Shown: piece after piece, positions 48-59,631 of the stretch
Position numbering within the stretch: position 1 is the stretch's first letter
Layout: each line of letters starts with the position of its first letter
Source: Singulisphaera sp. GP187
GTDB taxonomy: Bacteria > Planctomycetota > Planctomycetia > Gemmatales > Gemmataceae
Length of the DNA: 60,723 nucleotides
Direction: 5' to 3'
Assembly (NCBI GenBank): GCA_945861245.1
Contig: CAMAUE010000012.1
Span: 1-60,723, forward strand
The notes under the pieces: generated by a model
What the model saw: the letters and a program-made list of their open reading frames with translations, nothing else
What the model was told of the DNA's origin: nothing
Database searches by the model: none
Translations under genes and position numbers: made by a program

Positions 48-132
48 CGACAAAAGTCGCTTTACGAGCCGGAAGCGTAAGCGACGGACTGGAGAAATCC
101 GTCGCTTACGCTTCCGGCTCGTACTTTTGTCG
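48..132. repeat. Intergenic palindrome, family G (GCGTAAGCGACGGA type)
   Basis: Long inverted repeat. The left arm (48-87) and right arm (98-132) pair almost perfectly apart from a 5-base insertion in the left arm, with a loop of about 10 bases. The core resembles the palindrome at 19292-19381, which also has a CAAAAGTCG outer end and an inner GCGTAAGCGA segment. No gene is seen to its left inside the window, so its relation to a transcript end cannot be judged. Confidence 0.85.
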
Positions 133-478
133 GCGGTGTTCTTTTTAACGAGTCGGCCAATCCCCTCGGGCAGGTGGCGGGGCGGCATGGCACGACCCCC
201 TAAAAGGCTTGCGAGGTTGCTTTGTTGCGAACTTGTCTGTGTACTAAAACACGCAAGCCTAAAACACGCAAGCTTACTTGTACAAGATTAAAGTTATATT
301 TTCGAGGGTTCGTAGCAGGTTTCCTTCGGGTGAATAAACGCGCTCTAAGCTTCGTGGCCAACACCCCCAAAAAAGCGAAAAAAATACCGAAAAAACGCGA
401 AAGTGTTTGGCCATCGGCGGGCTGGTCAATCGCTCGGGTTGGCCACGCCGCAGGCTCCTTCGTCGCCTGCAGGCTTGC
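133..478. other. Non-coding stretch downstream of the porin gene
   Basis: No convincing gene. The short open frames here have atypical composition and no ribosome binding site. The stretch contains A-rich runs at about 367-402 and a small hairpin, GCAGGC with GCCTGC, near 451-473 just past the porin stop. That hairpin could help end the porin transcript but lacks a T-run. The phrase CGCTCGGGTTGGCCA near 430 recurs near 11425, so it may be a short dispersed repeat. Confidence 0.4.
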
Positions 479-1519
479 TTAATATCGCACGCCGGCTCGC
501 AGCGCGATGCCGATGAGGCCCATGTTGGTGTTCGATGCGGAGCCCGAGCCGGCCGTGTCGATGTTGCTCGTATTACCGGTGCCCCACCAGACTTGGCCGT
601 GGAAGCCGGCTTGCAGGAATAGCTTCGATTTGCCGATGTCGCGCTGGTACTCCGCGCCGACTTCAAATTCGCCGACGGGGAGCACCTGGAATTGGTTGCG
701 TGAGACATGCTGGAACGTCGTGCCGTTGTTCGCCGACTGATGCTCGTTTTGCCGACCGAACAGGACCGAGCCATAGATCTGGCTGTAGATTGCGAAGGCG
801 GATTCGCCGAGGCGGCGTTTGGTGTCGAAGGAGATCGATGGCCCGGCGCCGTGATAGCTGTGCCCATTGGAGAGGTTGACGGCGGAGCCGGGGCCGGCAA
901 GCGTCGCCTGATAATCGAGATTCAGGTAGGTGTAACGCACGCCGCCGCCCAGGACGTGCGTCCAACGTGGGCCGTCCCAGGTGCGGGTGGCCTGAAGGTC
1001 CACGACGCTGGTGCTGAGGTTGCCGCGTGCGGTGATGGTCCCAGCAACGGGTGTCATGCCGAGAGCGAGCGTTGATGCGCCGCCGACTGTTTCGCCCGAG
1101 GCGGCGGTTTGGCTGGCGGCGTAGGTGCGGTCGAAGTGGAACCAGCGTGCCCGGGCGCCTCGGCCGCGTTCGCTGGTGTAATCGATGCGGACCATCGGGG
1201 CGACATCGAGCGAGGCGCCGAAATCCATTTGCTGGGAACCTGCGCTGCGATTGATGACGAACGCGGGATTGGTATTGAAGGCGGGATGGACGAAGTAAAC
1301 GCCGGCGTGGATCGCCCATTCGCCAGTACGATTGCGATCGGTGTTAGGCCGCTTCGCATCGGGATACTCCGGTGGCAACAGAACACCGTTGTTTGCGGCA
1401 TCGGCGGACGGCGGGGCGTTGGGGATCGTCGGTGGCAGGACCACATCATCGGCGTAAAGCGATTGAATACACGCGAGTGTGGCAAGAAACGCACCGAGAA
1501 ATCGGCATGGCCAGTTCAT
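479..1519 (-). CDS. Lpg1974-type (Legionella MOMP-like) outer-membrane beta-barrel protein
   Basis: Probable outer-membrane pore protein of 346 residues. The start chosen is the ATG at 1519, because a hydrophobic signal peptide (MNWPCRFLGAFLATLACIQS, then a cut near LYADD) begins there and an AAGGA-type ribosome site lies 8 bases upstream; the frame is open further upstream but that extension is charged and non-hydrophobic. After a Pro/Asn-rich linker (residues 25-60) the protein is made of alternating amphipathic strands rich in Gly, Tyr, Phe and Asn, and ends in a short strand with a terminal aromatic (GVRY), typical of barrels. Pattern and layout fit the family annotated in planctomycetes as Lpg1974 family pore-forming protein (PF05150-like). 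The exact substrate is unknown. It is transcribed away from nadA. Confidence 0.72.
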   Translation of the reverse strand: MNWPCRFLGAFLATLACIQSLYADDVVLPPTIPNAPPSADAANNGVLLPPEYPDAKRPNTDRNRTGEWAIHAGVYFVHPAFNTNPAFVINRSAGSQQMDFGASLDVAPMVRIDYTSERGRGARARWFHFDRTYAASQTAASGETVGGASTLALGMTPVAGTITARGNLSTSVVDLQATRTWDGPRWTHVLGGGVRYTYLNLDYQATLAGPGSAVNLSNGHSYHGAGPSISFDTKRRLGESAFAIYSQIYGSVLFGRQNEHQSANNGTTFQHVSRNQFQVLPVGEFEVGAEYQRDIGKSKLFLQAGFHGQVWWGTGNTSNIDTAGSGSASNTNMGLIGIALRAGVRY

Positions 1520-1844
1520 GGAGAAATCCTTTTCACGCGAGGTAGATCGATGGTGTCCCTTCGGCCGTGAAGGGTGGGGTATCATTCATCATCGGATGAA
1601 ATCGGTCGAATCCGTAGAAGAACCGCGCTAACCGATAATCCGCACAGCAAGGATGTCACGCAAACCAGGCGCAATCCGTACAACCAGCTACCGTTTAGCG
1701 GCTGCAGGAGAAATTGGGATCGCTATATTCACCAAACTTCCTTGTATTACCACACTCGCAATATGTACACTGAAAGGAAGAAGAAATCGTAAATTCCCTG
1801 CTGTGGGTTGTCCTCCGCCACACTAAAAACAAGGAACACTCCTC
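1520..1844. other. Divergent intergenic region between porin gene and nadA
   Basis: This 325-base gap must hold the promoters of both divergent genes. A small hairpin, TTCATC-ATCG-GATGAA, sits at about 1587-1602. No convincing -35/-10 pair or known riboswitch could be identified by eye. The AAGGA ribosome site of nadA is at about 1831-1835. Confidence 0.4.
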
Positions 1845-2771
1845 ATGACCAATCTCATCGACGAAATCAAGCAACTCAAAAAAGACCGCGACGCGACGAT
1901 CCTCGCCCACTATTACCAGGACGGCGAAATCCAGGAATTGGCCGACTTCACGGGCGATAGCCTCAAACTGGCTCGCGCCGCCACCAGGGTGCAGACGAGC
2001 ACGATCGTCTTTTGCGGTGTGCACTTCATGGCCGAGACCGCGAAGATGCTGAACCCGGAGAAGCACGTCCTGCTGCCTGACATGAAGGCCGGCTGTAGCC
2101 TCGCGGACAGCTGCCCGGCGCCAAAGCTGCATCGCTACCAAGAGATGTTGCGCGAGAACGGGCATCGCTTCCAAACCGTGACCTACATCAACAGCACCGC
2201 CGCCGTGAAAGCTATAAGCGATTGGATCGTGACGTCGGGCAACGCCGAGGAGATCATTCACCGCGTGCCAAAGGACATGGAGATTCTTTTCGTGCCCGAT
2301 CGGCATCTTGGTCAATATTTGGAAGAGGTCACGGGCCGCAAGATGATCCTGTGGAACGGCTCATGCATGGTGCATGAGATTTTCAGCGTCGGCGATCTGC
2401 TCGCGCAGAGGAAGAAGATACCGGCGAGTATCACGCTGGCGCATCCGGAATGCCCGGCGAACATCCGCGAGCACAGCGATTTCGTCGGCGGGACCGAAGC
2501 GATGCTAAAGTACGTCGGCGCATTCGGCGAACCCAAGGAATTTCTCGTCGCCACGGAAGCCAATATGATGTGGCAGCTGCAAAACCAATTTCCGCGGCAC
2601 CGTTACCATCCGGTTCCGGGCATCTCGTGTGCGTGCAACAAATGCCCGCACATGGCGCTGAACACGCTCGAAAAACTGCGTGAGTGCCTGGCGACCGGCG
2701 GACCGGAGATCACCTGGCAGCCGGAGTTCGACAAAGCCCGCGAAGTCGTTCAGCGAAGCCTGCTGAATTGA
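1845..2771 (+). CDS. nadA: Quinolinate synthase A
   Basis: Condenses iminoaspartate with dihydroxyacetone phosphate to quinolinate in de novo NAD synthesis; a cytoplasmic [4Fe-4S] enzyme. The 308-residue length is normal. Recognisable blocks are AHYYQ (21-25), GDSLKLA (37-43), [13 protein letters not shown] (57-69), CSLADSC (84-90), [10 protein letters not shown] (114-123), WNGSCMVHE (170-178) and CACNKCPHM (262-270). Cys84, Cys174 and one Cys of the 262-267 group are the expected cluster ligands. The ATG has a clear AAGGA site. nadB and nadC are not in the window, so the gene stands alone. Confidence 0.97.
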
Positions 2772-2811
2772 GGCAGCGTTCCCCTGGCGCTGCGCCCGCA
2801 TGGGATTATCC

Positions 2812-2832
2812 GAGCGCTAAGCCGCAAGCGGA
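2812..2832. repeat. Solo right arm of family-A palindrome
   Basis: The string GAGCGCTAAGCCGCAAGCGG is the right arm of the family-A palindrome found complete elsewhere (for example 9091-9146). The matching left arm is missing; a GC-rich stretch without clear complementarity lies where it should be. It sits between the converging nadA and RarD-type genes and looks like a decayed copy. Confidence 0.8.
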
Positions 2833-2843
2833 AAACGAGGGAG

Positions 2844-3725
2844 TCATGCATTCACTTTTTGCTGGCGATAAAAGCGAAAGGAATCGATCGAGAAGATCAC
2901 CAGCGCGGCCCAGACCATGACATAAGGCCACCACCCGCCGCGAATTTGCTCGCCGAAAAGCGTGATCGCGAGCACAAACTGTAAACTCGGCGAGATGAAC
3001 TGCATAAATCCGAGCAACGAGAACGGCAATCGCCGCGCGGCTTGGCCAAAGCAAAGCAGCGGGATCGCCGTCACGACGCCACTGAGCGACAGCTTGGCGA
3101 GGTGTTGCGTATCTTCCAAATTGCCTCGCTCAATCGTCAACGCGATCAGGCCGCCGACCGCCAAGGGCAGCAGCACGATTGTTTCGACGGCCAAACCGGT
3201 CAACCCATCTACGGGCACTTTCTTGCGGATCATTCCATATAAACTAAACGACAGCGCCAGGGCGAACGCGATCCAGGGAACTTCGCCGCCCGCAAACGCC
3301 AACGCCACGACGCCAATCCCCGCAACGACCACCGCCAGGTACTGCAACGCCCGCATGCGCTCGCCGAAGATCACCATGCCGAGCGCAATATTGACGAGAG
3401 GCAAAATGAAATAGCCAAGGCTCGCTTGCACGATCTTCTGTAGATGCACCGCAAGGATATACATCAGCCAGTTGAACGCTACCAATATCGCCGAGATTAT
3501 CAGCGGTCGCAAAATGTCGCGTGTCTTGAGGCTACGGAGCGTTTCGTTCCATCGTCCGGTGACCGTCAATATCATCGCCAAAAAAACAGCCGACCAGAAG
3601 ATGCGATGGGCGAGAATATCGAGCGGTGAAATCTCACCCAGCCAGCGGAAATAGATCGGCACGAGGCCCCACCAACCATAAGCTGCCAGGCCATACAGTA
3701 CTCCCTCGCGTGTCGGGCTTGCCAC
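2844..3725 (-). CDS. rarD: RarD-type EamA-family transporter
   Basis: Inner-membrane permease of the drug/metabolite transporter superfamily. The 293 residues contain about ten hydrophobic helices forming two EamA halves. The N-terminus (GVLYGLAAYGWWGLVPIYFR, residues 8-27) followed by a PLDILAHRIFWS segment is the signature of the RarD (chloramphenicol-sensitive protein) branch. Substrate is not established for the family. The likely start is GTG at 3725, preceded by an AGGAAGGA site about 9 bases away. The gene converges on nadA. Confidence 0.9.
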   Translation of the reverse strand: MASPTREGVLYGLAAYGWWGLVPIYFRWLGEISPLDILAHRIFWSAVFLAMILTVTGRWNETLRSLKTRDILRPLIISAILVAFNWLMYILAVHLQKIVQASLGYFILPLVNIALGMVIFGERMRALQYLAVVVAGIGVVALAFAGGEVPWIAFALALSFSLYGMIRKKVPVDGLTGLAVETIVLLPLAVGGLIALTIERGNLEDTQHLAKLSLSGVVTAIPLLCFGQAARRLPFSLLGFMQFISPSLQFVLAITLFGEQIRGGWWPYVMVWAALVIFSIDSFRFYRQQKVNA

Positions 3726-3754
3726 GTTGAATGATTCCTTCCTGATTCGTATCA

Positions 3755-3817
3755 GAGCCTCGCACGAAGTCAGCGGTTTGAGACTTCACATTCAACCGCT
3801 TACTTCGTGCGAGGCTC
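3755..3817. repeat. Intergenic palindrome, family I
   Basis: Near-perfect inverted repeat with arms GAGCCTCGCACGAAGT (left) and ACTTCGTGCGAGGCTC (right) and inner AGCGGTTTGA/TCAACCGCT pairing. It lies in the gap upstream of the RarD-type gene and upstream of the cyclo-ligase gene. No second copy of this family was found in the window. Confidence 0.85.
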
Positions 3818-3918
3818 CAACACTCCAACACGATTGCATAGAGAACTAATGATATAGGCGAGACTCTCTGCCGTGACGATCCTATCAATAGAAAGGAACG
3901 CCCGTCGCGGCGGATATT

Positions 3919-3947
3919 GTTTAGCCGCTTGCTTCTGGCGAGCGCGT
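3919..3947. repeat. Solo arm of family-B palindrome
   Basis: TGTTTAGCCGCTTGCTTCTG followed by GCGAGCGCG matches one arm of the family-B element that is complete at 17533-17621 and 44691-44791. The second arm is absent. It lies about 20 bases before the start of the cyclo-ligase gene. Confidence 0.7.
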
Positions 3948-3966
3948 AATCCAGGACCATTGATTC

Positions 3967-4581: not shown

Positions 4582-4592
4582 ACGAATTCTTG

Positions 4593-4650
4593 CCGAGCCT
4601 GAGCGCCAGCGAAGGACACGTAGAAGCCCTTCGCTGGCGCTCAGGCTCGG
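4593..4650. repeat. Intergenic palindrome, family F (GAGCCTGAGCGCCAGCG type)
   Basis: Arms CCGAGCCTGAGCGCCAGCGA and its complement at 4631-4650, loop of about 16 bases. The same core recurs at 51827-51890. It occupies almost the whole gap between two genes read in the same direction. Confidence 0.9.
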
Positions 4651-4679
4651 ACGAACCAGCAAAAATTGAAGGACCATCC

Positions 4680-5582: not shown

Positions 5583-5602
5583 GGTGTTGGCGCTTTCGTT
5601 TT

Positions 5603-7014: not shown

Positions 7015-7020
7015 ACATTT

Positions 7021-7099
7021 AAGCCCAAGGGTGAGCGCAGCGAATCCTTGGGATCGGACGCCATATCCCAAGGATTCGCTGCGCTCATCCTTGGGCTTA
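7021..7099. repeat. Intergenic palindrome, family E (AAGCCCAAGG type)
   Basis: Long inverted repeat. AAGCCCAAGGGTGAGCGCAG pairs with CTGCGCTCATCCTTGGGCTT with one mismatch, and inner CGAATCCTTGGGAT pairs with ATCCCAAGGATTCG. The remaining loop is about 10 bases. A shorter related hairpin, CCCCAGGA..TCCTGGGG, is at 47951-47980. Confidence 0.92.
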
Positions 7100-8303: not shown

Positions 8304-8350
8304 GTTTACGTTTAGCGCTCGCGCGAGCGCTAAACGTAAACCGGATTTTT
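8304..8350 (+). terminator. Palindrome with T-run, likely terminator (short family-A variant)
   Basis: GTTTACGTTTAGCGCTCGC (left) pairs perfectly with GCGAGCGCTAAACGTAAAC (right) with no extra loop, then CGGATTTTTTC follows. It begins 14 bases after the aminotransferase stop. The perfect stem plus T-run fits an intrinsic terminator. The TTTAGCGCTCGC core is shared with 45366-45416. Confidence 0.65.
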
Positions 8351-9071: not shown

Positions 9072-9090
9072 CGATTTTTATTGGACGTAT

Positions 9091-9146
9091 TCCGCTTGCG
9101 GCTTAGCGCTCAGGTGGAATCTTGCGAGCGCTAAGCCGCAAGCGGA
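9091..9146. repeat. Intergenic palindrome, family A (complete)
   Basis: TCCGCTTGCGGCTTAGCGCT at 9091 pairs with AGCGCTAAGCCGCAAGCGGA ending at 9146; the spacer is about 15 bases. This is the commonest family in the window, with at least six complete copies and two solo arms. Confidence 0.95.
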
Positions 9147-9162
9147 AATCAAGGACCCTATC

Positions 9163-13582: not shown

Positions 13583-13600
13583 TTCCGCTTGCGGCTTGGC
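13583..13600. repeat. Solo left arm of family-A palindrome
   Basis: TCCGCTTGCGGCTTGGCG is the left arm of the family-A element with one change (GG for AG). No right arm follows. It lies just upstream of the alcohol dehydrogenase start. Confidence 0.65.
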
Positions 13601-13632
13601 GTTTGGGGCATCCCTTGTTTACGCTACGTGCA

Positions 13633-14061: not shown

Positions 14062-14085
14062 GTGTGGCCTCTGTTTGGTTGTTTT

Positions 14086-14129
14086 CGTTTAGGGCCTACG
14101 CCCGCGTCGCATTGAGCGGGCGCTAAACG
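14086..14129. repeat. Imperfect palindrome, related to family A/B
   Basis: CGTTTAGGGCCTACGCCCGC (left) pairs imperfectly with GAGCGGGCGCTAAACG (right). The outer CGTTTAG/CTAAACG ends are shared with the short family-A variants. It lies just downstream of the large propeller gene, which ends at 14139. Confidence 0.65.
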
Positions 14130-14138
14130 TGGAACGTA

Positions 14139-17495: not shown

Positions 17496-17532
17496 GACGC
17501 TGCTCCCGTTTGCGACTCAGGAAATGAACCAT

Positions 17533-17621
17533 GTTTAGCCGCTCGCCTGTGGCGAGCGCGGGCGTTACGATCGCGATTGCGTGTCGTCAAACCCGCGCTC
17601 GCCACAGGCGAGCAACTAAAC
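17533..17621. repeat. Intergenic palindrome, family B (complete)
   Basis: GTTTAGCCGCTCGCCTGTGG and the following CGAGCGCGGG pair with CCCGCGCTCGCCACAGGCGA and GCAACTAAAC. The arms themselves contain a small inner palindrome (CGCCTGTGGCG). The spacer is about 29 bases. Family B also occurs at 31255-31339 and 44691-44791. It lies between two genes read on the minus strand. Confidence 0.93.
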
Positions 17622-19117: not shown

Positions 19118-19526
19118 GAGGTAGCTACTCCTGATGGCGTGCGGTGAGCGATAGGGATATTTTACGAATTCGTCCGGCGACTCTGCCTGCGCGTTGACAA
19201 GTTGCGATGAATTCGGGTTGCAGAGAGGTGCGAGGCCGCTAGAGCTGGCTTAAATGCAATGAAGAACGAGGAATGTAGAATGACGCGCCCATCAAAAGTC
19301 GATTTTTCGTCCAAGGCTGAAGCGTAAGCGAGGCATTCAGGCAGCCTCACTTACGCTTCAGCCTCGGAAATCGACTTTTGAGGGTGGCGTCAAGAATGAG
19401 GAATTGCATATGAATCTTTCGCACGCGCGGATTCGCCTGCATTACTTCTTAATTCCTCGTTTTTCATTCGTCGTTGTATTTGGGCGTTCGTCAGATCGAG
19501 CAACGCTACGTCTGTGTGCCCGGCCA
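19118..19526. other. Intergenic region upstream of the NtrC-type gene
   Basis: About 400 bases without a convincing gene. It holds the long palindrome at 19292-19381 and otherwise repeated GAAGAACGAGGAAT / GAATGAGGAATTGC-like phrases of low complexity. The NtrC promoter should lie close to 19120-19200 but no clear -35/-10 or -24/-12 element could be assigned. Confidence 0.45.
19292..19381. repeat. Intergenic palindrome, family G
   Basis: Outer arms TCAAAAGTCGATTT and AAATCGACTTTTGA, inner arms GGCTGAAGCGTAAG and CTTACGCTTCAGCC with small mismatches at their junctions; about 20 bases of loop. It shares AAAAGTCG and AGCGTAAGCGA with the element at 48-132, so the two are related though not identical. 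Confidence 0.9.
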
Positions 19527-21640: not shown

Positions 21641-21923
21641 CTCAGATCTCCTCTTCAAGCATGAAAACCGGGGTACGACTCAAAATGCGGCAGGGCCTGA
21701 GAATGGCTCCCACCTGGTTACATGTCAAATCTGCCCGATAATGCCGCTTTGGTAAAATGAACTTGAGAGGATAATTGGAAAATTTACAAGTTGAGGCTGG
21801 TACACCATGACTTTTCCGCACAGTGGGAATATTCCGCTTGGTGAACCTTGTCCGCCTTCGTAAGACGTAACGGGAACCGTTGAAATCGTTATTACCCGCA
21901 CGGCCCAACAGGAAGGCCCGCTC

Positions 21924-31254: not shown

Positions 31255-31339
31255 CTGTTTAGCTGCTCGCATTCGGCGAGCGCGAACATGTGCCGCTCGC
31301 CACGCCAGTCGTGCTCACCAAAGGCGAACGGCTAAACAG
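31255..31339. repeat. Intergenic palindrome, family B (diverged)
   Basis: CTGTTTAGCTGCTCGCATTC (left) and the right end GGCGAACGGCTAAACAG share outer CTGTTTAGC/GCTAAACAG arms and the inner GCGAGCG segments with the complete family-B elements, but with more mismatches. It fills the gap between the CvpA-like gene and the pilus-type ATPase gene. Confidence 0.8.
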
Positions 31340-35542: not shown

Positions 35543-35662
35543 GAACCACAGAGGCACAGAGGACACAGAGAAAATACGAAGAATGGGAAAAAATCAAAGC
35601 ACGCAGATTGCTGAGAGTTCCCGTTCACTATCCCGCGAATTCCCTCTGTGCCTCTGTGGTTA
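35543..35662. repeat. Long-arm inverted repeat, family H
   Basis: GAACCACAGAGGCACAGAGG and ACACAGAGA at the left, CCCTCTGTGCCTCTGTGGTT at the right; the arms pair well and about 70 bases separate them. Together with the solo family-D arm before it and the family-D palindrome after it, the 35392-35812 gap is made almost entirely of repeats and holds no gene. Confidence 0.88.
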
Positions 35663-35704: not shown

Positions 35705-35773
35705 GGGGTGAGGTACCCCGAACCCCTGGGATATACGCATGCAAAAATCCCAGGGGCTCGGAGTACCTCACCC
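35705..35773. repeat. Intergenic palindrome, family D (complete)
   Basis: GGGGTGAGGTACCCCGAACC and CCTGGGA pair with TCCCAGGGGCTCGGAGTACC and TCACCC at the right end. The loop is about 16 bases. Solo arms of the same family are at 35477-35501 and 43205-43233, and a partial relative is in the hairpin at 25665-25708. Confidence 0.92.
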
Positions 35774-36020: not shown

Positions 36021-36136
36021 TAGTACGACAGCGCTACTTCGTAGGTCAGGCTTTCCAGCCTGACGCATTTTGACGAACATGGGCAAGCCGCGTCATGCTG
36101 GAAAGCCTGACCTACGTAACTAGCGCTGTCGTATTA
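36021..36136. repeat. Intergenic palindrome, family C, left of unknown gene
   Basis: Outer ends TAGTACGACAGCGCTA and TAGCGCTGTCGTATTA, inner arms GTAGGTCAGGCTTTCCAGCC and its complement with small mismatches, further inner TTCCAGCC hairpins. A second copy of the same family lies at 36726-36842. The two copies bracket the gene at 36210-36728. Confidence 0.95.
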
Positions 36137-36145
36137 GCTCACTGT

Positions 36146-36175
36146 TTTACGCCAGGCAACTCAGATCGCTAAAAT
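36146..36175 (+). promoter_or_regulatory. Possible promoter of the bracketed gene
   Basis: TTTACG (36146-36151) and TAAAAT (36170-36175) with an 18-base spacer, about 35 bases before the ATG at 36210. It lies right after the left family-C palindrome. Weak call by eye only. Confidence 0.3.
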
Positions 36176-36209
36176 ACACCCCGGACCATTTATCCGAACG
36201 AGATAAGCC

Positions 36210-36728
36210 ATGTTGGAACACCCAAGCCTTCGCCTGCGGCAGTGGTCGAAATCGGCCGACACCGAAGGCGAACCGACATGGTTGCGTCTGATCGCCGATG
36301 CCGATGGGAGACGCCTAGGCGCAGTGCGGTTGAGGGGCGTGCCGGCATCGTCATGGTTTTTTTGGTTACGCTCAGCCCGGCTGGACGTGGTTGAGACCGA
36401 CGACGATTCCGAACTCATGCAGATGCGCCAATCGTGGAGCCTGTTCAATGTGTGGGAGTTGAGCGACGCCGAGGACATGCACGTCGGCAGCGTTTACGCG
36501 CGAACGCTAATCTCGTCGCTGGGTGATTGCCTGGCATATGTCCAAAGAGGCGAGCGGGGCGATGTGCGAATTGTCGATCCCACTGGCATCGAGATTGCCG
36601 TTATTCGCGCGTGCGAATCGGATTCAGTGGAATTGACGTTTCATGGGGCGCAAACAGCGAATCCCTTTCTACGAATGATGCTGCTTGCCTGCGCCATCGC
36701 GATGAATCCATCGCCCGATTCAATGTAG
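36210..36728 (+). CDS. Protein of unknown function between two family-C palindromes
   Basis: 172 residues, soluble, no signal peptide. Alternating strands are seen (WLRLIADADGRRLGAVRLRG, SWSLFNVWELSDAEDMHVGS, VRIVDPTGIEIAVIR, SVELTFHGAQTA) and a C-terminal helix FLRMMLLACAIAMNP. This layout vaguely recalls scramblase/LURP-one beta-barrel proteins, which have 'D-x-G-x-x-(V/I)-(G/A)' turns and a C-terminal buried helix, but I do not recognise it with confidence. The stop codon TAG is the first triplet of the right palindrome (36726), so the two are fused at the base level. Confidence 0.75.
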   Translation: MLEHPSLRLRQWSKSADTEGEPTWLRLIADADGRRLGAVRLRGVPASSWFFWLRSARLDVVETDDDSELMQMRQSWSLFNVWELSDAEDMHVGSVYARTLISSLGDCLAYVQRGERGDVRIVDPTGIEIAVIRACESDSVELTFHGAQTANPFLRMMLLACAIAMNPSPDSM

Positions 36729-36842
36729 TACGAGAGCGCTCGTGACGTAGGTCAGGCTTTCCAGCCTGACGTAGCTTGGCCAGGATCGTCAAAATGCGTC
36801 AGGCTGGAAAGCCAGCCCTACGTCACTAGCGCTGTCAAACTA
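36726..36842. repeat. Intergenic palindrome, family C, right of unknown gene
   Basis: Begins TAGTACGAGAGCGCT and ends AGCGCTGTCAAACTA; inner arms GTAGGTCAGGCTTTCCAGCC and GGCTGGAAAGCCAGCCCTAC. It shares most bases with the copy at 36021-36136 in the same orientation. It overlaps the stop codon of the preceding gene and ends 2 bases before the stop of the DtxR-type gene. Confidence 0.95.
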
Positions 36843-36844
36843 CC

Positions 36845-37568: not shown

Positions 37569-37627
37569 TTGCCGCTTGCGGCTTAGCGCTCGCAAGTGCC
37601 ACGCGAGCGCTAAGCCGCAAGCGGCAA
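37569..37627. repeat. Intergenic palindrome, family A (complete)
   Basis: TTGCCGCTTGCGGCTTAGCG and the right end CGCTAAGCCGCAAGCGGCAA pair perfectly; inner CTCGC/GCGAG extends the stem. Just before it, at about 37527-37566, a low-complexity direct repeat (GTGGCTAGTGG, twice) is seen. Confidence 0.95.
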
Positions 37628-38298: not shown

Positions 38299-38351
38299 CG
38301 CTTGCGGCTTAGCGCTCACGTGGGATGATCCAAGCGCTAAGCCGCAAGCGG
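38299..38351. repeat. Intergenic palindrome, family A (complete)
   Basis: CGCTTGCGGCTTAGCGCT pairs with AGCGCTAAGCCGCAAGCG, about 15-base loop. It lies between the membrane-protein gene start and the stop of the large VWA gene. Confidence 0.95.
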
Positions 38352-44690: not shown

Positions 44691-44791
44691 TGTTTAGCCG
44701 CTCGCCTTTGGCGAGCGCGGGCGCGGGCGCGGCGAATTTCAATCGTTGGCAAAGCGCCACACCCGCGCTCGCCAAAGGCGAGCGGCTAAAC
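44691..44791. repeat. Intergenic palindrome, family B (complete)
   Basis: TGTTTAGCCGCTCGCCTTTG with GCGAGCGCGGG pairs with CCCGCGCTCGCCAAAGGCGA and GCGGCTAAACA. The spacer is about 39 bases and includes GCGGGCGCGGGCGCGG-type sequence. It sits between the divergent glnA and Rrf2-type genes, i.e. in their shared promoter region. Confidence 0.94.
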
Positions 44792-44916
44792 ATCACAGAA
44801 TACCGCATACCCACATCGCCCTTCCAGATAGAATGAAGTTAATCGGTTCGCTGGCACAGTATTTCCATGCCGCGCGTGGCGATTACGCCGCCGATACCGG
44901 CGCTGGGAGGTGGTTG

Positions 44917-45365: not shown

Positions 45366-45416
45366 TGCTTGCGTTTAGCGCTCGCGCGGCGCCATGCGAG
45401 CGCTAAACGGCAAGCA
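45366..45416. repeat. Intergenic palindrome, short family-A variant
   Basis: TGCTTGCGTTTAGCGCTCGC pairs with GCGAGCGCTAAACGGCAAGC with one unpaired base. It fills the gap between the Rrf2 gene and the ABC ATPase gene; its TTTAGCGCTCGC core is shared with 8304-8341. Confidence 0.92.
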
Positions 45417-45429
45417 AAAAAAACACACC

Positions 45430-51672: not shown

Positions 51673-51966
51673 CGCTGGCCGGCGTTCCGCTAGCGCGTCG
51701 TGGCGATTTTCGCTTCTCCAATCCCCATTTGCGATCCGCAACGAGCCGTGGATTGGTTTTTTTCGATGAGGCCGGAACTTATCATCGCCATCGGTGTTAT
51801 ACTTCGAGCGGATGAATTTGTCCGGTCAGAGCCTGAGCGCCAGCGCAAGGCACCCCGGAAACGTTGCCCTTCGCTAACGCTCAGGCTCTGAAAATGCGAC
51901 AATCTCACCCGTCCGCAGTATAGCGGCGGCGGAATCGAGGAAGGTAACTATCCGGGCAGCAAGGGC
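51673..51966. other. Region between first haem gene and small ORF
   Basis: No confident gene. An ATG at 51812 has a TATACT box (51798-51803) just upstream and opens a short frame (MNLSGQSLSASARHPGNVAL) that runs into the palindrome at 51827-51890 and stops. Beyond the palindrome another frame without an upstream start codon continues into the small membrane-protein frame at 51967-52206. This looks like a small gene interrupted by the palindrome. Confidence 0.35.
51827..51890. repeat. Intergenic palindrome, family F
   Basis: CAGAGCCTGAGCGCCAGCGC pairs with TTCGCTAACGCTCAGGCTCTG with one or two mismatches. It shares GAGCCTGAGCGCCAGCG with 4593-4650. It may interrupt a small gene (see 51812-52206). 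Confidence 0.92.
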
Positions 51967-52792: not shown

Positions 52793-52848
52793 ACCGTCAG
52801 GGAGCGGCCGACATTATGGGGTATCCATTCGGCCGCTCCCTGACGGTC
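52793..52848. repeat. Intergenic palindrome, family L
   Basis: ACCGTCAGGGAGCGGCCGA pairs perfectly with TCGGCCGCTCCCTGACGGT, loop of about 18 bases. It lies 21 bases past the ybeY stop and immediately next to the 3' end of the transposase remnant, so it may be a terminator or part of the old insertion's edge. Confidence 0.85.
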
Positions 52849-53945: not shown

Positions 53946-56723
53946 ATGCGTTTGATTCTGGTCCTTTCCGCGGCGATTTACTTCTCGCTTCCTGCCTTCG
54001 CGCAACTCGACGTACCCAAGGCGGCCGATCCACGGCTCGTTGTGGAACTCGTTGCGCAGTCGCCGGATATCGTGCATCCGATCTCGTGCGACTTCGATCA
54101 TCAAGGTCGGCTGCTCGTCATCGAGAGCCATACGCACTTCGCGCCGAAGGACTACAAAGGCCCGAAGTTCGATCGCATCCGCGCGTTCGAGCTACACAAG
54201 GACGGCAAGCCGGGCTTCGCGAAAGTCACCACGTTTTACGAAGGCACGCGCCATACGATGGACCTCGCCGTGCATCCCGACGGCTCGGTCTACATCGCCA
54301 CGCGCAATGAAATTCTGCGCCTGCAAGACACCCAGAAAACAGGCGTGGCGGACAAGGTCACGCGCATCGTCTTCCTCGACACCAAGGGCGACTATCCGCA
54401 CAACGGCCTATCGGGTTTGTGCTTCGACACAAAGGGCAATCTCACGTTCGGCATGGGCGAGAACCTCGGTGCGTTCTATGCGTTGATTGGTTCCGATGGC
54501 AAGAAATTCACCGGCCAGGGCGATGGCGGGCATATCTTCCACTGCACCGCCGACGGCAAGAACCTCCGCAAAGTTGCGACCGGTTTCTGGAATCCGTTCG
54601 GCATCTGCCGTGACATCTATGGCCGAATGTTCTGCGTGGACAACGACCCCGACCAGATGCCGCCGTGCCGAATGTTGCACGTCGTCGAGGGCGGCGACTA
54701 TGGCTTCCGCTTTTGCTACGGGCGCTCGGGGAAGCATCCGTTCCAATCGTGGCATGGCGAACTGCCCGGCACGTTGCCGATGATGACCGGCGTCGGCGAG
54801 GCGCCATGCGAAATCCTCAGCTACGAATCCGACGGGCTGCCCAAAGAATACCTCGGCCAACTCCTGGTCACATCGTGGGCCGATCACCGCGTCGAGCGCT
54901 ATCAGGTGAAGCCGCATGGTGCATCGTTCAAGGCCGAGCGCTTGCCGTTCGTGCAAGGCGGCAACAACTTCCGCCCCGTCGGCATGTGCATCGCTCCCGA
55001 CGGCTCCATCTTCATCACCGACTGGGTTCTCAGCAACTACACCCTGCACGGCAAAGGCGCGATCTGGCACATTCGAGCGAAGGACTTGGCAAACCGGGAG
55101 CGTAAGCGACCGGAGGATCCGCGCGAGGCGATTCTCTCTCTGCATCGCCCGCTGCGAGAATCGGCGGCGAGCAAGCTGTCGGGCGACGATAACGGCCGAG
55201 CCTTCCTACGCAATTTAGCCGGCACGAGCGCAGGCCGGCCCGCCGCCTCGGCCTTGAAGGCGCTTATTGATGCCAGCGCAATAAATACTCCGCAACTCGA
55301 AGAGATAGCCAAGAAGATTCGCAACTACGGCGTCGACGAAATTGCCGTGCAAGAACTTCTCGCTCGGCGCGAGTTGAAACCCGGCGTGGTTACTCACCGA
55401 TCCGACTTGCGATTGCGTACTTTGGAGTTCGGAGCGTATGATTTCAAAGCGAAGGATCTCGATGACCGTGATATCGAGTTCTTTCTCGATGCGCTGACGA
55501 GTCCCGACGCCTTTTTGCGGCAAGCCGCGATATTTCACATCGGAAACAGCAGAGCGGTTGGGAGGTTGCGATACGAGAAAGAGAAAAATTCGCAACTTCG
55601 ACAAGCCATTCTCCTGGCCGACCAATTCGACACTCGCCGTGTTCCGCGCGCGGACCGGCCAAAGATTTATCTTGACGACCCCGACGAAACCGTTCGCTTC
55701 CTCGCGGTCAAGTGGATCGCCGACGAAAAGCTGAAGGACTACCGCAAGGATGTCGAGAAAGCCATGCAAGACCCCACGCTCAGCGTGCGCATGTACCAGG
55801 CTCTCGCCACCGCGCTGGCGCGCATCGACGGCAAGGATGTCAACGAGAACAGCCTCGCCGACTACTTCGCGAAACGGCTCGCCGACGATGCGACGCCAAT
55901 GGCTCAGCGTGCGACGTTGTTGCGCCAGATTCCCGCAACGCACAAAGCGCTGACGGTGGACCTGCTCGCGAAATTGCTGATGTCCGATGATGGGGCACTC
56001 AAGCTCGAAGCGGTGCGAGCGCTGGTCGAGCATCCGAGCGCGAAACGGCACGATGCCTTGCTCGGCGTGTTCCGCGATGTGAAGCTTGCCATGCCGGTGC
56101 GGGCGTTCGCCATGGTCGGGCTGATAGATCGCGCGGAGTTGGTCGACGAACTCAAGGCGATTGCCAATGACAAGGTATCACCGTTACGCCAAGACGCAAT
56201 GCGAGCCCTCATCGGCATCAAAGGCGCGAGCGGTCAACATGTGCCGGAGAAGAATCGGCCCGCGTTCAAAGACATCGACGCCTGGCAGAAGCGGCTCGAA
56301 GGTCCGGCGGATGCCGAGGCCGGCGCTCGCGTGTTCTTTCATCCGAAGGTCGGCGCGTGTTTCAAATGCCATCGCATTGATGGCCGCGGCGCGGATGTCG
56401 GGCCGGACCTGAGCAACATCGGCCGGGTCGAACGTCGGCAGCTTTTGGAGTCGATCTTGCAGCCGTCGAACACGGTCGCGCCGCGCTATCAAAACTGGTA
56501 TCTCGAAACCGCCGATGGCAAGACGCGCAACGGCGTGCTGCTGCACACAAATCTCGACGAGTACACGTATCTGGACGCGAACGGCGGTCGCTTCAAGCTC
56601 AAAACGGGCGACATAGTCGAGCAGCGGGCGGTGCCGACATCGATCATGCCGGAGGCGTTGGTGGATGGGTTGATGGACCAGGAGCTGCGCGATTTGCTGG
56701 CGTATTTGCAGTCGAGGAAGTGA
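53946..56723 (+). CDS. PVC-type CxxCH haem protein (sugar dehydrogenase-like propeller)
   Basis: 925 residues. ATG 53946 opens a signal peptide (MRLILVLSAAIYFSLPAFAQ). The apparent upstream extension is only the antisense of the transposase remnant. A six-bladed PQQ-dehydrogenase-like propeller (about 20-390; HPISCDFDHQGRLLVIESH, DLAVHPDGSVYIATRNEI, GFWNPFGICRDIYGRMFCVD, PDGSIFITDW) is followed by HEAT repeats (about 400-780) and a C-terminal cytochrome c domain with haem motif CFKCH (about 813-817) and PSNTVAPRYQNW. This is the TIGR02604/TIGR02603-like planctomycete type. It probably sits in the periplasm; substrate unknown. It is related in layout to the gene at 48085 but lacks the LamG domain. 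Confidence 0.94.
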   Translation: MRLILVLSAAIYFSLPAFAQLDVPKAADPRLVVELVAQSPDIVHPISCDFDHQGRLLVIESHTHFAPKDYKGPKFDRIRAFELHKDGKPGFAKVTTFYEGTRHTMDLAVHPDGSVYIATRNEILRLQDTQKTGVADKVTRIVFLDTKGDYPHNGLSGLCFDTKGNLTFGMGENLGAFYALIGSDGKKFTGQGDGGHIFHCTADGKNLRKVATGFWNPFGICRDIYGRMFCVDNDPDQMPPCRMLHVVEGGDYGFRFCYGRSGKHPFQSWHGELPGTLPMMTGVGEAPCEILSYESDGLPKEYLGQLLVTSWADHRVERYQVKPHGASFKAERLPFVQGGNNFRPVGMCIAPDGSIFITDWVLSNYTLHGKGAIWHIRAKDLANRERKRPEDPREAILSLHRPLRESAASKLSGDDNGRAFLRNLAGTSAGRPAASALKALIDASAINTPQLEEIAKKIRNYGVDEIAVQELLARRELKPGVVTHRSDLRLRTLEFGAYDFKAKDLDDRDIEFFLDALTSPDAFLRQAAIFHIGNSRAVGRLRYEKEKNSQLRQAILLADQFDTRRVPRADRPKIYLDDPDETVRFLAVKWIADEKLKDYRKDVEKAMQDPTLSVRMYQALATALARIDGKDVNENSLADYFAKRLADDATPMAQRATLLRQIPATHKALTVDLLAKLLMSDDGALKLEAVRALVEHPSAKRHDALLGVFRDVKLAMPVRAFAMVGLIDRAELVDELKAIANDKVSPLRQDAMRALIGIKGASGQHVPEKNRPAFKDIDAWQKRLEGPADAEAGARVFFHPKVGACFKCHRIDGRGADVGPDLSNIGRVERRQLLESILQPSNTVAPRYQNWYLETADGKTRNGVLLHTNLDEYTYLDANGGRFKLKTGDIVEQRAVPTSIMPEALVDGLMDQELRDLLAYLQSRK

Positions 56724-56730
56724 TTCGTTT

Positions 56731-56791
56731 GCCGCTTGCGGCTTAGCGCTCAACGTCGCGCGGCGTGAAGTGAGCGCTAAGCCGCAAGCGG
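56731..56791. repeat. Intergenic palindrome, family A (complete)
   Basis: GCCGCTTGCGGCTTAGCGCT pairs with AGCGCTAAGCCGCAAGCGG; loop of about 23 bases. It lies between the converging haem-protein and alpha/alpha-barrel genes, 7 bases past the former's stop. Confidence 0.95.
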
Positions 56792-56798
56792 AAAAACG

Positions 56799-58040
56799 TT
56801 ATTCGATCACCGCATCCAGATACTGCACCATCGCGGTGAGGGCGTGTTGCGTGTAGTCGATGCGGATGTTGCCGTCCTGGTGCGAGGCGAAGAACGCGCC
56901 GATGATGTTGGGTCGAAAGGTCGGCGTAAAATGATCGGTGTTGTACGACGTATATTGCAGTTTCATCAAAAACTGCACGTTGTTCAGGAGCGCCCGTTCG
57001 TAGCGTTGCAAGCGAGGCAGATCGCCGGCGTGCTTCGCGACTCGGCAGGCCTCGGCCAGGCTCACTGCGGCGCGGGCCGAGCTGATGTCGGGCGTCGTCG
57101 ATTCCACCTTGTTGTTCTGGCTACGCGGAAAACCGCCCGCCCAATGGGCGCGCGTCGATTCAAACTCATCTCGATACTGCAAGCCGACCAGCCAATCGTT
57201 CATCGCGAAAACGGTGTCCGCAAACTCCTTCTCTTTGGTAAGCAAATACGCCTCGGCATAGGCCGGCGTCTGGCTGGCGACGCAGGCGATCGATCGATTC
57301 GTCTGCCAAGAGTCGTGATAGTAGCCACGCGCCTTGCGAACGATATCGAGCTTCCAGTCAGCCGGGCGACGTTTGCAGCTTCTTATCAAGCCGTGCATTG
57401 CCCAGCCTGCGTTCTCGGCCTCGCCGTCGGGCGAGTGGCCGCGGACCAGATTCGGGCCGATCGTCATGAGCAGTGAGCCATCGGGTCGCTGCTGCTTGCG
57501 GATGTAGTTGCAAAGTTCGTCGGCTTTATCGAGTAGATCAGTGCCCGGATTCGCGAGTTCGTGGATTGCAAGGACGAGCGTGCCATTGGCGTGGAGGCGC
57601 GAAATGGCCAGCGGCGGGGCGGCGGAGTATCGGCAGGACTTGTCGTCGGGATCGGGCATCGTCTCCAGCAGCAGCGTCAGCAGTGATTGCCGAGCGACTG
57701 CGGTGACACGTTCGTCGCGGAAGTATCGGCCCGCCCGTGCCAGTGCGAAGCCGGCACCGACTTGGCTGAGGTAGTTGTCGCCATCGAGATTGGTCTTGAG
57801 AGCCGGCTGAAGCCCATACTTGAATCGACCGTCGGCACGATTTGCGAGCCGTAACCAGTCGGTCGCGCGCTCGGCGCAAAAATAGATCGGCTGGGCGCCG
57901 TCGGGAATCTTCGCGAGGTCACGTGGCTTTTGCAGCGTCGGCGGAGCAGGCACGACGCGCGAGGTCTGCACAATTGGCGATGGCTGGGCGAGCACGAGCA
58001 GCGGAAAAAACGACAGCGAAAGAATAGCAAACACGCGCAT
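56799..58040 (-). CDS. Secreted alpha/alpha-barrel-like protein of unknown function
   Basis: 413 residues from ATG 58040 (AGGAGG 8 bases upstream) with signal peptide MRVFAILSLSFFPLLVLAQP. The rest is mostly helical with repeated FALARAGRYFRDERVTAVAR, TLVLAIHELANP, ELCNYIRKQQRPDGSL and SLAEACRVAKHAGD units. The (Q/K)xxDGS motif and spacing resemble squalene/pectate-lyase-type (alpha/alpha)6 toroids or family-88/105 glycoside hydrolases. Catalytic residues cannot be assigned. A second, earlier in-frame ATG at 58109 gives a polar leader without hydrophobic character. Confidence 0.7.
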   Translation of the reverse strand: MRVFAILSLSFFPLLVLAQPSPIVQTSRVVPAPPTLQKPRDLAKIPDGAQPIYFCAERATDWLRLANRADGRFKYGLQPALKTNLDGDNYLSQVGAGFALARAGRYFRDERVTAVARQSLLTLLLETMPDPDDKSCRYSAAPPLAISRLHANGTLVLAIHELANPGTDLLDKADELCNYIRKQQRPDGSLLMTIGPNLVRGHSPDGEAENAGWAMHGLIRSCKRRPADWKLDIVRKARGYYHDSWQTNRSIACVASQTPAYAEAYLLTKEKEFADTVFAMNDWLVGLQYRDEFESTRAHWAGGFPRSQNNKVESTTPDISSARAAVSLAEACRVAKHAGDLPRLQRYERALLNNVQFLMKLQYTSYNTDHFTPTFRPNIIGAFFASHQDGNIRIDYTQHALTAMVQYLDAVIE

Positions 58041-58129
58041 AGCCGAGGCCTCCTGCCCACGAGATTGTGGTCCGGGAGGAGTATACCGGAATTCGCCGCG
58101 CGGATTCAATGTGGATTTGAATGGGTATT

Positions 58130-58185
58130 GCCGCTTGCGGCTTAGCGCTCAGAAGGCGCCGTGCGAGCGCTAAGCCGCAAGCGGC
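58130..58185. repeat. Intergenic palindrome, family A (complete)
   Basis: GCCGCTTGCGGCTTAGCGCT pairs with AGCGCTAAGCCGCAAGCGGC, loop of about 16 bases. It sits between the alpha/alpha-barrel gene start and the nuclease-inhibitor gene stop, on the minus-strand path. Confidence 0.95.
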
Positions 58186-58209
58186 GGAATCGGGAAGTTG
58201 TTTTTTTCC

Positions 58210-58578
58210 TTACGTCTCAACAACCTCGGTTTGCAGGCCTGCCCATTTGCCGTCGTCCGTCCTGCCGACGATGAACACGGCCAGGTTGACTTCACCGACC
58301 TTATGGACTTCGATGTCGCTAAGGTGTTCTTGCAATTGTTTGGCGAGGGCGTCGAACTTCGCTTTTTCCGATTTCGGGACGGCCCGAAAAAACGCGGCAA
58401 GCGTCATCTTCTCGATCGCCGGGTCGTCGCCTCGCTCGGACAACTCGGCGAGGCGCTTCGGCGTCGGCCCATCCTTGGCGTCCCACACGAAAGGATTCAG
58501 CTCGGCATCGGTTTCGCTGCTGAAGAGCAGGCCCTCGCAGGCTTTCTTCAACAGCGCGAGTAGGGGGTGTTTTTTCAT
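58210..58578 (-). CDS. nuiA-like: NuiA-like nuclease inhibitor
   Basis: 122 residues, no signal peptide, so cytoplasmic. It matches the nuclease-A inhibitor family (PF07924): LLKKACEGLLFSSETDAE (9-26) aligns with the GLLFMSES part of Anabaena NuiA, and VHKVGEVNLAVFIVGRTDDG (91-110) and WAGLQTEVVET (112-122) align with its C-terminal strand. The C-terminal Thr122 (VVET-end) and Glu22 correspond to the NuiA residues (Thr135 and Glu24 as I recall) that contact the metal and active site of NucA. It starts 26 bases after the nuclease gene's stop, so the two are one operon. Confidence 0.88.
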   Translation of the reverse strand: MKKHPLLALLKKACEGLLFSSETDAELNPFVWDAKDGPTPKRLAELSERGDDPAIEKMTLAAFFRAVPKSEKAKFDALAKQLQEHLSDIEVHKVGEVNLAVFIVGRTDDGKWAGLQTEVVET

Positions 58579-58604
58579 CGCTTTCGGATCTCACATCACA
58601 ATTG

Positions 58605-59456
58605 TCAACGATTCGGATTCGGCCTCGGGGTGACGATGATGCGTTCGTCGTCCACGCGATCCATGATGGCGGTGGCGACTTCCTTGTTCAACCGCGGGAA
58701 GAAGCGGTAACCCGTGAGCTTTTCGACTTCGCGGATCGACACGCGGTACATGCTCCAATCCTCGCCGACGCTCTGGTCATTCGGAACGATAACCGCGATG
58801 GGCCGAGTGCGCGGGTCGGGCGTCGTGCGGCCTTGGGCGAGCACCAGAATCACCTTCCACGTTTTCGCGGGCACGGTGACGTGGATCTTGCCCTTGTCGA
58901 TCGATTTCATGAAGCCGTTCTTGCCTTCACCGCCGACGCCATAGGGGCCGCAAACGATGTGAAGTTCATGCCCTTTCTTGACCTGATCGCGGCTATACGC
59001 TTCGAGGCGTTCCCAGGCTCCTTGATTGTTCTTGGGCGCTTGCGGGACGATATTGGTCAGGAAGAATGTCGTATCGTTGTCGGCATCCGTATTGGAGCGG
59101 TCCTTGCTGGGACACATATGCCCGCGATCGAACCCGCTGGCGATGTAGGTGCCGTGCGTCACATGCGGGAAGCTTCGAGGTAACGCCGGGTCAGGCTCGA
59201 ACGACCCGCGGGTGGCGTTGCCGATATCGGCTTTCGTCAGATTCCAGCTTACCCAATTCGGGATGTTCTTTTTGCCGTTGAACGACAGGACGTACTGATC
59301 GCGTTTGATAACGAAGTCTTCCACTGTCGGATCGGCGAAAGGCTTGATCTTCGTGGGCATGCCGCCTGCGATGTTGCGATTGGTTTTGGGTTGCGCGGCA
59401 ACTGTCACGGGCAATGCCAAAATTGCGAGCAGAAGGAATGAACGTAGAAATGTCAT
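58605..59456 (-). CDS. Secreted NucA-type DNA/RNA non-specific endonuclease
   Basis: 283 residues with a signal peptide (MTFLRSFLLLAILALPVTVA, cut near AQPK). It belongs to the beta-beta-alpha-metal DNA/RNA non-specific endonuclease family (PF01223; Serratia nuclease, Anabaena NucA). The catalytic motif is DRGHMCPSKDR (110-120) with His113 as base; TNIVPQAPKNNQGAWERLE (134-152) supplies the metal-binding Asn near 144 and Glu152. It degrades nucleic acids outside the cytoplasm, for nutrition or defence. The inhibitor gene follows immediately, so the cell makes its own antidote. Confidence 0.93.
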   Translation of the reverse strand: MTFLRSFLLLAILALPVTVAAQPKTNRNIAGGMPTKIKPFADPTVEDFVIKRDQYVLSFNGKKNIPNWVSWNLTKADIGNATRGSFEPDPALPRSFPHVTHGTYIASGFDRGHMCPSKDRSNTDADNDTTFFLTNIVPQAPKNNQGAWERLEAYSRDQVKKGHELHIVCGPYGVGGEGKNGFMKSIDKGKIHVTVPAKTWKVILVLAQGRTTPDPRTRPIAVIVPNDQSVGEDWSMYRVSIREVEKLTGYRFFPRLNKEVATAIMDRVDDERIIVTPRPNPNR

Positions 59457-59576
59457 GCTTTGCTCCTTGTCCTGGAGTGGGGGATAGGGACATCATGCGA
59501 GGAAAAGGATATGGATTTGGCAGAGGGCCGGCAATCGAACGGGGCGGGAGAGGGTTTGTTGGCAGATTTTTGTTTT

Positions 59577-59631
59577 CCGCTTGCGGCTTAGCGCTCGGGA
59601 CATAATCAGGGGAGCGCTAAGCCGCAAGCGG
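59577..59631. repeat. Intergenic palindrome, family A (complete)
   Basis: CCGCTTGCGGCTTAGCGCTC pairs perfectly with GAGCGCTAAGCCGCAAGCGG; loop of 15 bases. It lies just downstream of the HEAT-repeat gene's stop (minus strand), upstream of the nuclease gene start. Confidence 0.95.

What the first reader, a model, noticed from the sequence alone, without database searches (positions are those of the whole stretch)
48..59631. Half or more of the intergenic gaps carry a palindromic element, with about twelve families and several recurring many times
Complete or partial palindromes were read at more than 25 places. Family A (CCGCTTGCGGCTTAGCGCTC with its complement) recurs at 9091, 37569, 38299, 56731, 58130 and 59577, with solo arms at 2812 and 13583. 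Family B (TGTTTAGCCGCTCGCC) recurs at 17533, 31255 and 44691, solo at 3919. Families C, D, E, F, G and H each recur at least once. Loops and spacers vary while arms are conserved. This density resembles REP/BIME or MITE-like elements, but no matching transposase (RAYT-type) gene is in the window, and the families share GAGCGC/TTTAGC fragments, suggesting a common origin or one mobilising enzyme.
Basis: partly seen in the sequence, partly recalled or inferred. Interest (0 to 1): 0.75.

Follow-up and report, generated by a model that had tools for sequence, protein, structure and literature searches.

The report
Several mobile palindrome families sharing gaps
About half of the gaps between genes in this planctomycete carry short mirror-image DNA repeats that look like miniature jumping elements, and for the commonest families the enzyme that probably copies them was found elsewhere in the same genome, wrapped in the same repeat.

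Summary
Genome-wide, exact arms occur 706 times (A) and 427 times (B), with none in reversed controls. In 261 kb of this genome 86 of 99 hairpins are intergenic, and 69 of 133 gaps hold one. The pairing recurs in other planctomycetes; five or more A cores occur in 15 of 31 genomes with a RAYT match, 0 of 30 without. In a syntenic relative 7 of 26 elements are absent or replaced. So these are REPIN-like elements, mobilised by several enzymes, not one. A, B and D lack the GTAG foot of canonical REPs, and their three transposase genes each carry an internal stop. Known kind, new members; large A and B populations with interrupted enzymes are the unusual part.

The parts
9090..9147 (.). Family A inverted doublet, 14-nt spacer
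   Evidence: conserved in place in G005 with one paired arm change
37569..37627 (.). Family A inverted doublet
   Evidence: G005 has an E-type palindrome in the same gap
38299..38350 (.). Family A inverted doublet, one mismatch per arm
   Evidence: conserved in G005
56728..56795 (.). Family A inverted doublet
   Evidence: conserved in G005 with a diverged spacer
58130..58185 (.). Family A inverted doublet
   Evidence: G005 has a 19281-type element in the same gap
59577..59631 (.). Family A inverted doublet
   Evidence: G005 has a G-like palindrome in the same gap
2812..2831 (-). Family A solo arm
   Evidence: conserved in G005
13585..13604 (+). Family A solo arm, 3 mismatches
   Evidence: conserved in G005
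17531..17621 (.). Family B inverted doublet, each half = GTTTAGC foot + hairpin
   Evidence: G005 keeps a 63-b shorter form
31255..31337 (.). Family B inverted doublet, degenerate
   Evidence: conserved in G005
44691..44792 (.). Family B inverted doublet
   Evidence: conserved in G005
3918..3950 (+). Family B solo half, degenerate
   Evidence: conserved in G005
8304..8341 (.). Family D palindrome, no spacer (G005 copy has 27 more bases in the middle)
45366..45417 (.). D-like arms; the G005 copy at the same place has A arms around a similar spacer
14080..14137 (.). Degenerate D-like inverted pair
52793..52847 (.). Family E palindrome (family flanking the C109 RAYT)
63..123 (.). Family G palindrome inside a ~100-b repeated element (38-139)
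4593..4650 (.). Family H palindrome
51826..51891 (.). Family H palindrome inside a ~125-b repeated element
19281..19392 (.). 112-b inverted-repeat element with inner G/I-type palindrome; absent from G005
7020..7099 (.). Family J palindrome with two paired arm changes against G005
3755..3817 (.). Single palindrome with two paired arm changes against G005
35706..35773 (.). Palindrome family GGGTGAGGTAC..., 6 members in the 261-kb sample
36040..36843 (.). Pair of K-type elements (36040-36116, 36725-36843) around an ORF; G005 lacks the first and has different sequence at the second

Best explanation
The palindromes are several co-resident populations of REPIN-like miniature elements: two copies of a short arm in inverted orientation around a spacer. 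Each of the families A, B, D and E is, or was, copied by its own HUH single-tyrosine (RAYT/TnpA_REP-like) transposase, found once elsewhere in the genome and flanked by the same palindrome. Shown: A and B arms in hundreds of copies (D and E fewer), mostly intergenic and, for A, mostly paired; one flanked RAYT-like gene each for A, B, D, E and F; RAYT groups and flanking palindromes change together between major groups in other planctomycetes; five or more A cores only in genomes with some RAYT match; some sites differ between two close genomes. Inferred: the enzyme binds the arm as a single-stranded hairpin with its 5' foot (GCTAAG for A, GTTTAGC for B), cuts and rejoins it, and copies doublets into new, mostly intergenic sites where insertion is tolerated; elements later decay into solo arms, with some arm-coordinated substitutions. 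The A, B and D transposase genes here each have an in-frame stop, so these three populations are probably orphaned, perhaps recently.
For: Copy number: A arm 706 exact in 6.04 Mb, B arm 427, reversed controls 0; in 344 kb of own sequence D 8, E 8, F 4 exact arm matches, reversed 0. A doublets: 199 here, 120 in G005, control 0. In the 261-kb sample 50 of 65 A arms (<=4 mismatches) are in doublets, and 21 of 25 doublets have a 14-nt spacer. Spacers are related but diverse: 58 spacers of 14 nt among 75 listed of 319 doublets, mean identity 0.51, 21 shuffles mean 0.29. Intergenic: 86 of 99 hairpins where 18.6% of the sample is non-coding (binomial p 6e-49). RAYT-like genes flanked by A, B, D, E, F palindromes. 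HUH and YxxxNP motifs, Pfam Y1_Tnp over cut-off for A and B; predicted fold of an A-type relative finds ISDra2/IS200 TnpA and RAYT 4er8. Mantel r 0.565, p 0.0002 over 60 loci; 21 of 26 loci with both flanks have matching palindromes, shuffled mean 9.1, largest 14 (duplicates not removed). A core in >=5 copies: 15 of 31 genomes with any match to the A-RAYT query, 0 of 30 without. Exact A arms vary in the genus: 706, 441, 76, 62, 31, 13, 9. Site differences.
Against: No transposition was observed. The clean presence/absence cases are a non-RAYT-linked element (19281, absent in G005) and, less cleanly, a D doublet that G005 has and the window lacks (58587); for the three A sites missing in G005 the surrounding gap also differs, so junctions are not defined. 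The A-RAYT scores 51 bits against NCBIfam's RAYT cut-off of 80. Co-divergence does not reach significance within the A-labelled loci (r 0.146, p 0.11), and the A and D labels are not clean clades. Most RAYT matches among the 31 genomes are distant. G005 has 441 A arms but its only match to the query is a B-like gene (draft, 91% complete). The A half arm alone folds no better than its shuffles. No RAYT flanked by G, H, I, J or K was found among the six Y1 places.
Confidence: 0.85

Rival explanations
1. The palindromes are intrinsic transcription terminators or mRNA-stabilising hairpins, fixed in place.
For: Strong hairpins in gaps; 16 of 26 are conserved in place in G005; arm changes are sometimes paired (5 of 269 pairs).
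Against: Identical 20-mers at 706 places. A is flanked by T on the 5' side and by A on the 3' side, the reverse of a terminator's 3' T run. Little convergent-gap excess: 6 of 25 doublets against 24 of 133 gaps. Copy number varies about 80-fold within one genus. A role in mRNA stability is not excluded.
Confidence: 0.06
2. They are MITEs of a conventional DDE transposon with inverted ends and target duplications.
For: The 112-b (19281), ~100-b (38-139), ~125-b (51799-51925) and K-type elements are longer and repeated; 19281 is cleanly absent from G005, and the two flanking alignments overlap by 13 b there, a possible imperfect duplication.
Against: For A, B and D the genes flanked by the arms are Y1-like. 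No clear target duplication was seen by eye at the A sites. No DDE gene search was run. Plausible for the longer families, not for A, B, D.
Confidence: 0.08
3. One enzyme moves all families.
For: A, B and D share TTAGC/GCTC fragments; F, G, H and I share another scheme.
Against: Five RAYT-like genes, each with a different flanking palindrome; A-labelled RAYTs carry the CCGC-NN-GCGG core in 27 of 35 loci with a palindrome, B 0 of 10, D 2 of 15; B arms are nearly restricted to the genus while the A core is not.
Confidence: 0.03

Closest known systems
REPINs and RAYTs of Pseudomonas fluorescens SBW25 and E. coli (Bertels and Rainey 2011, PMC3116915, passages seen; PMC8049555, passages seen)
   Same: Inverted doublets with a diverse spacer as the dispersed unit, extragenic, RAYT gene flanked by the same repeat, more copies in RAYT-bearing genomes.
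   Different: The A, B and D feet lack GTAG; the A spacer is mostly 14 nt; several families coexist; the A, B and D RAYT genes carry an internal stop.
TIRYT genes and TIRtrons (Di Nocera et al. 2013, PMC3733652, section 16 and passages seen)
   Same: RAYT-like genes flanked by non-GTAG inverted repeats, some self-complementary and forming repeat families; the planctomycete R. baltica is said to have several REP families and a plethora of such genes and flanking repeats.
   Different: The paper calls TIR families moderately abundant; A reaches 706 exact arms. The string CGCTTGCG is not in its main text, but its Figure 9 and supplements were not visible to me, so identity with a listed TIR is not excluded.
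TnpA_Y1 class 3 and subclass 2.6 (Quentin et al. 2018, PMC6006769, section 27 and passages seen)
   Same: E and F RAYTs have a Y----Q type motif like class 3, which is found mainly in Planctomycetes, Acidobacteria and Proteobacteria, with atypical non-GT[AG]G hairpins.
   Different: A and B RAYTs have the Y---NP motif of class 2; I did not run the paper's own profiles.

Membership tests
Canonical REP (GTAG superfamily) | 5' GTAG or GT[AG]G foot next to the hairpin | tested here: not met
   A arm reads GCTAAG-hairpin, B reads GTTTAGC-hairpin, the D arm has no GTAG (sequences; folds)
REPIN / BIME | Inverted doublets are the main unit | tested here: met
   50 of 65 A arms in the 261-kb sample are in doublets; 199 exact doublets genome-wide
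REPIN / BIME | Short diverse spacer between conserved ends | tested here: met
   58 spacers of 14 nt, mean identity 0.51
REPIN / BIME | Singlets more decayed than doublets | tested here: inconclusive
   mean mismatches 1.60 (15 singles) against 1.04 (50 doublet arms), no test made
REPIN / BIME | Extragenic location | tested here: met
   43 of 50 doublet arms and 14 of 15 single arms intergenic
RAYT / REPtron | HUH Y1 transposase flanked by the genomic repeat family | tested here: met
   at C163 (D) the downstream flank is a single arm
RAYT / REPtron | Curated NCBIfam RAYT model over cut-off | tested here: not met
   NF047646: 51, 41 and 50 bits against 80 for own A, an intact A relative and own B
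RAYT / REPtron | One RAYT gene per repeat type | tested here: met
   one flanked locus each for A, B, D, E, F among 6 Y1 places found; draft genome, 94.66% complete
RAYT / REPtron | Cleavage of single-stranded cognate REP | not testable with these tools
   needs biochemistry
Intrinsic terminator | T run 3' of the hairpin, convergent-gap bias (A only) | tested here: not met
DDE MITE | Target-site duplication | tested here: inconclusive
   13-b overlap of flanking alignments at 19281; none clear at A sites
DDE MITE | DDE transposase with the same ends | not tested
   no DDE gene search was run

The most novel reading that the evidence does not exclude
Planctomycetota carry a widespread RAYT lineage that recognises a GC[TG]AA-footed minimal hairpin (CCGC-NN-GCGG) instead of GTAG. 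In this genus such REPIN populations, two of them (A, B) with hundreds of exact arms, have outlived their transposases: the A, B and D genes are each interrupted by one stop, and the relative with 441 A arms shows no A-type gene. That would make it a natural experiment on whether REPIN populations persist, and are used by the host, without a RAYT.
Probability: 0.3. Interest if true: 0.6.

Novelty: new member of a known kind. Interest (0 to 1): 0.45.

Why it matters
It extends REPIN-RAYT biology to families without the GTAG foot. It gives a set of RAYT-repeat pairs across planctomycetes for testing how the recognition foot changes. It also offers close genomes with large repeat populations and an interrupted or missing transposase, so decay without the enzyme can be measured.

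Tried and rejected
Rfam scan of the window: 0 matches at gathering thresholds. Terminator reading: rejected for A on flank polarity and gap types. Amber recoding of the three interrupted RAYT genes: considered because all three internal stops are TAG; TAG also ends 33 of the 164 gene calls that end in a stop, and none of the 19 relatives' loci read has a stop at those places (of 102 loci only the three own genes and L118 have a stop inside the matched stretch), so ordinary interruption is preferred; three of three being TAG has a chance of 1 in 27 under equal stop use. Plasmid origin of the 56650-59650 stretch: no match. Spacer as unrelated host DNA: rejected, spacers share ancestry. Fetching much more of G000 and G005 for further empty sites was considered and not done.

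Limits: the gene caller is my own script, so gap counts are approximate. The set of 10 genomes with an A-type RAYT uses an identity limit of about 54% chosen after seeing the hits; the 15 of 31 against 0 of 30 statement uses no identity limit, but a copy limit of five chosen after seeing the counts (with one copy or more, one genome without a match, G030, also has the core). Paired arm changes rest on 12 of 14 hairpins that could be anchored; the null assumes independent sites (0.68 expected, 6 seen both changed, 5 still paired). Classes are my reading of the alignments. One of the RAYT-bearing records is titled Candidatus Nealsonbacteria (L121), not a planctomycete.

Literature (open-licence library only): searches turned up PMC3733652 and PMC6006769 as the papers on such repeats that name Planctomycetes; in what I saw of them the A, B and D families are not described. 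PMC11588811 held 'rayt' only inside an author name. PMC8266576: outline and abstract only. PMC2817692: search listing only.
Full report
WHAT WAS CHECKED. The window is contig C12 of a 6.04-Mb draft genome in 289 contigs, 94.66% complete. Five loci of same-family genomes have the contig lengths of records titled Gemmataceae or Fimbriiglobus, so the host is probably of that group of Planctomycetota (inference). Ten Markov shuffles of the window gave 0 or 1 hairpins of the strength of which 24 were found.

COPY NUMBER. The exact 20-nt A arm occurs 706 times in the genome and the 15-nt B arm 427 times, both strands summed, with none for the reversed patterns. In six relatives of the genus the A arm occurs 13, 9, 62, 31, 441 and 76 times; of the 14 other relatives searched only G010 has it (20). 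B is practically confined to the genus: of 61 genomes, G000 427, G005 239, G001 133, G002 62, G042 1, the other 56 none. D, E and F are rarer: 8, 8 and 4 exact arm matches in 344 kb of own sequence that includes their RAYT loci.

PLACE. In the window plus five 40-kb stretches (260,723 b), 86 of 99 non-overlapping hairpins are intergenic while 18.6% of the sample is non-coding; five shuffles of the whole sample gave 0-2 hairpins; 69 of 133 gaps of at least 40 b hold one, 16 of 29 in the window. Ten clusters have two or more members and 28 hairpins are singletons.

ANATOMY. A is an inverted doublet: TT[TG]CCGCTTGCGGCTTAGCGCTC, a spacer of 14 nt in 21 of 25 doublets of the sample, and the complement. 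199 exact doublets occur in the genome and 120 in G005. One search printed only part of them; I used the 75 it listed of 319. Of these 58 have a spacer of exactly 14 nt; they share ancestry (mean identity 0.51; 21 shuffles, mean 0.29, largest 0.30) while differing much, so the doublet is probably the copied unit. A half A arm folds as a small hairpin behind a GAGCGCTAA foot, though no better than its shuffles; a half B arm folds as a GTTTAGC foot plus an 8-bp hairpin, better than all 200 shuffles.

THE ENZYMES. Six places in the genome resemble Y1 transposases (C163 is weak there but 49% identical to the A protein). Five are flanked by palindromes: C145 by A, C126 by B, C163 by D (downstream a single arm), C109 by E, C77 by F; the sixth (C6, 127 aa) is not flanked by any of these. 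The A, B and D genes each contain one in-frame TAG before their HUH motif, and the D frame breaks up after it; the E and F frames are open. Relatives of A with 57-63% identity in seven other genomes are uninterrupted. The A and B proteins match Pfam Y1_Tnp over its cut-off but score under NCBIfam's RAYT cut-off. A predicted model of an intact A-type relative (mean pLDDT 83) finds ISDra2 and IS200 transposases first and the RAYT-hairpin structure 4er8 at rank 13, with modest TM scores.

COGNATE PAIRING. Around 102 RAYT loci (92 after removing duplicates) I looked for the best palindrome on each side. 60 of 92 have one of score 14 or more. The CCGC-NN-GCGG core is in 27 of 35 A-labelled loci with a palindrome, 0 of 10 B, 2 of 15 D; RAYT similarity and arm similarity correlate (Mantel r 0.565, p 0.0002), but not significantly within the A label (r 0.146, p 0.11). 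In a maximum-likelihood tree of 85 proteins B is one fully supported side; A and D labels (best BLAST match) are partly intermixed, though 14 of 19 D rows form a supported group and the own A gene pairs with that of G034, the genome outside the genus with the most A cores (315). Of 61 genomes, 15 have at least five A cores and all 15 are among the 31 with any match to the A protein; none of the 30 without a match has five. With a post hoc limit of about 54% identity, 10 of 10 genomes with an A-type gene have five or more cores against 5 of 51 others (Fisher p 3e-8). Four genomes (G001, G005, G010, G028) have more than 50 cores but no gene above that limit.

SITES IN A CLOSE RELATIVE. G005 aligns at 86-97% over most of the window. 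Of 26 elements compared, 16 sit in the same place, 2 are altered (17531 reduced by 63 b; 45366 with different arms), 7 are absent or replaced by something else (19281, 35544, 36040, 36725, 37569, 58130, 59577), 1 (51826) could not be anchored. G005 has a D doublet at window 58587 that the window lacks. The clean empty site belongs to the 112-b 19281 element, where the flanking alignments overlap by 13 b; the A sites that differ lie in gaps whose flanks also differ.

ARM-COORDINATED CHANGES. In 12 hairpins compared between the two genomes, 6 of 269 pairs changed on both sides (0.68 expected if independent) and 5 of these kept pairing; 15 pairs changed on one side; 9 pairs with a gap were set aside. 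This fits template-switch correction of inverted repeats (recalled, no call) or selection on structure; I cannot separate them.

TWO SUPERGROUPS. F, G, H and I arms resemble one another (local scores 10-16; 99% point of one shuffled pair 8) and G resembles the palindrome beside a RAYT of G050 (score 14); those RAYTs match the E and F proteins. G, H and I may thus belong to E/F-like enzymes; this is inference, since no Y1 gene found here is flanked by G, H or I.

VERDICT. REPIN-like populations with several RAYT-like enzymes: supported by association and comparison, not by experiment. They are not canonical GTAG REPs. The kind is known (REPIN-RAYT, TIRYT/TIRtron); the members and the interrupted state of three transposase genes were not described in the papers that my searches showed me.

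Noticed in passing
19281-19392: 112-b element with TGACGC...GCGTCA ends and an inner palindrome; about two dozen similar places listed in G005 and an empty site there. Its transposase was not sought.
   Followed up: partly
38-139: ~100-b repeated element at the contig start, about twenty similar places listed in G005; it may mark an assembly break at a repeat.
   Followed up: no
51799-51925: ~125-b repeated element with the H palindrome inside, more than twenty similar places listed in G005.
   Followed up: no
36040-36843: Two long K-type inverted copies around an ORF of 172 aa (36210-36728) without Pfam match; G005 lacks the first and has other sequence at the second.
   Followed up: partly
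3755-3817, 7020-7099, 9090-9147: Palindrome arms changed on both sides in concert between two close genomes.
   Followed up: partly
G000:C145, C126, C163 (L006, L007, L010): The RAYT genes of the three TTAGC-type families each carry an internal TAG; E and F genes are open.
   Followed up: partly
19610-21658 (-): 682-aa protein with YTV repeats encoded by 96-nt tandem repeats.
   Followed up: no
35544-35661: CACAGAGGCACAGAGG-type inverted repeat, three members in the 261-kb sample, absent at this place in G005.
   Followed up: no
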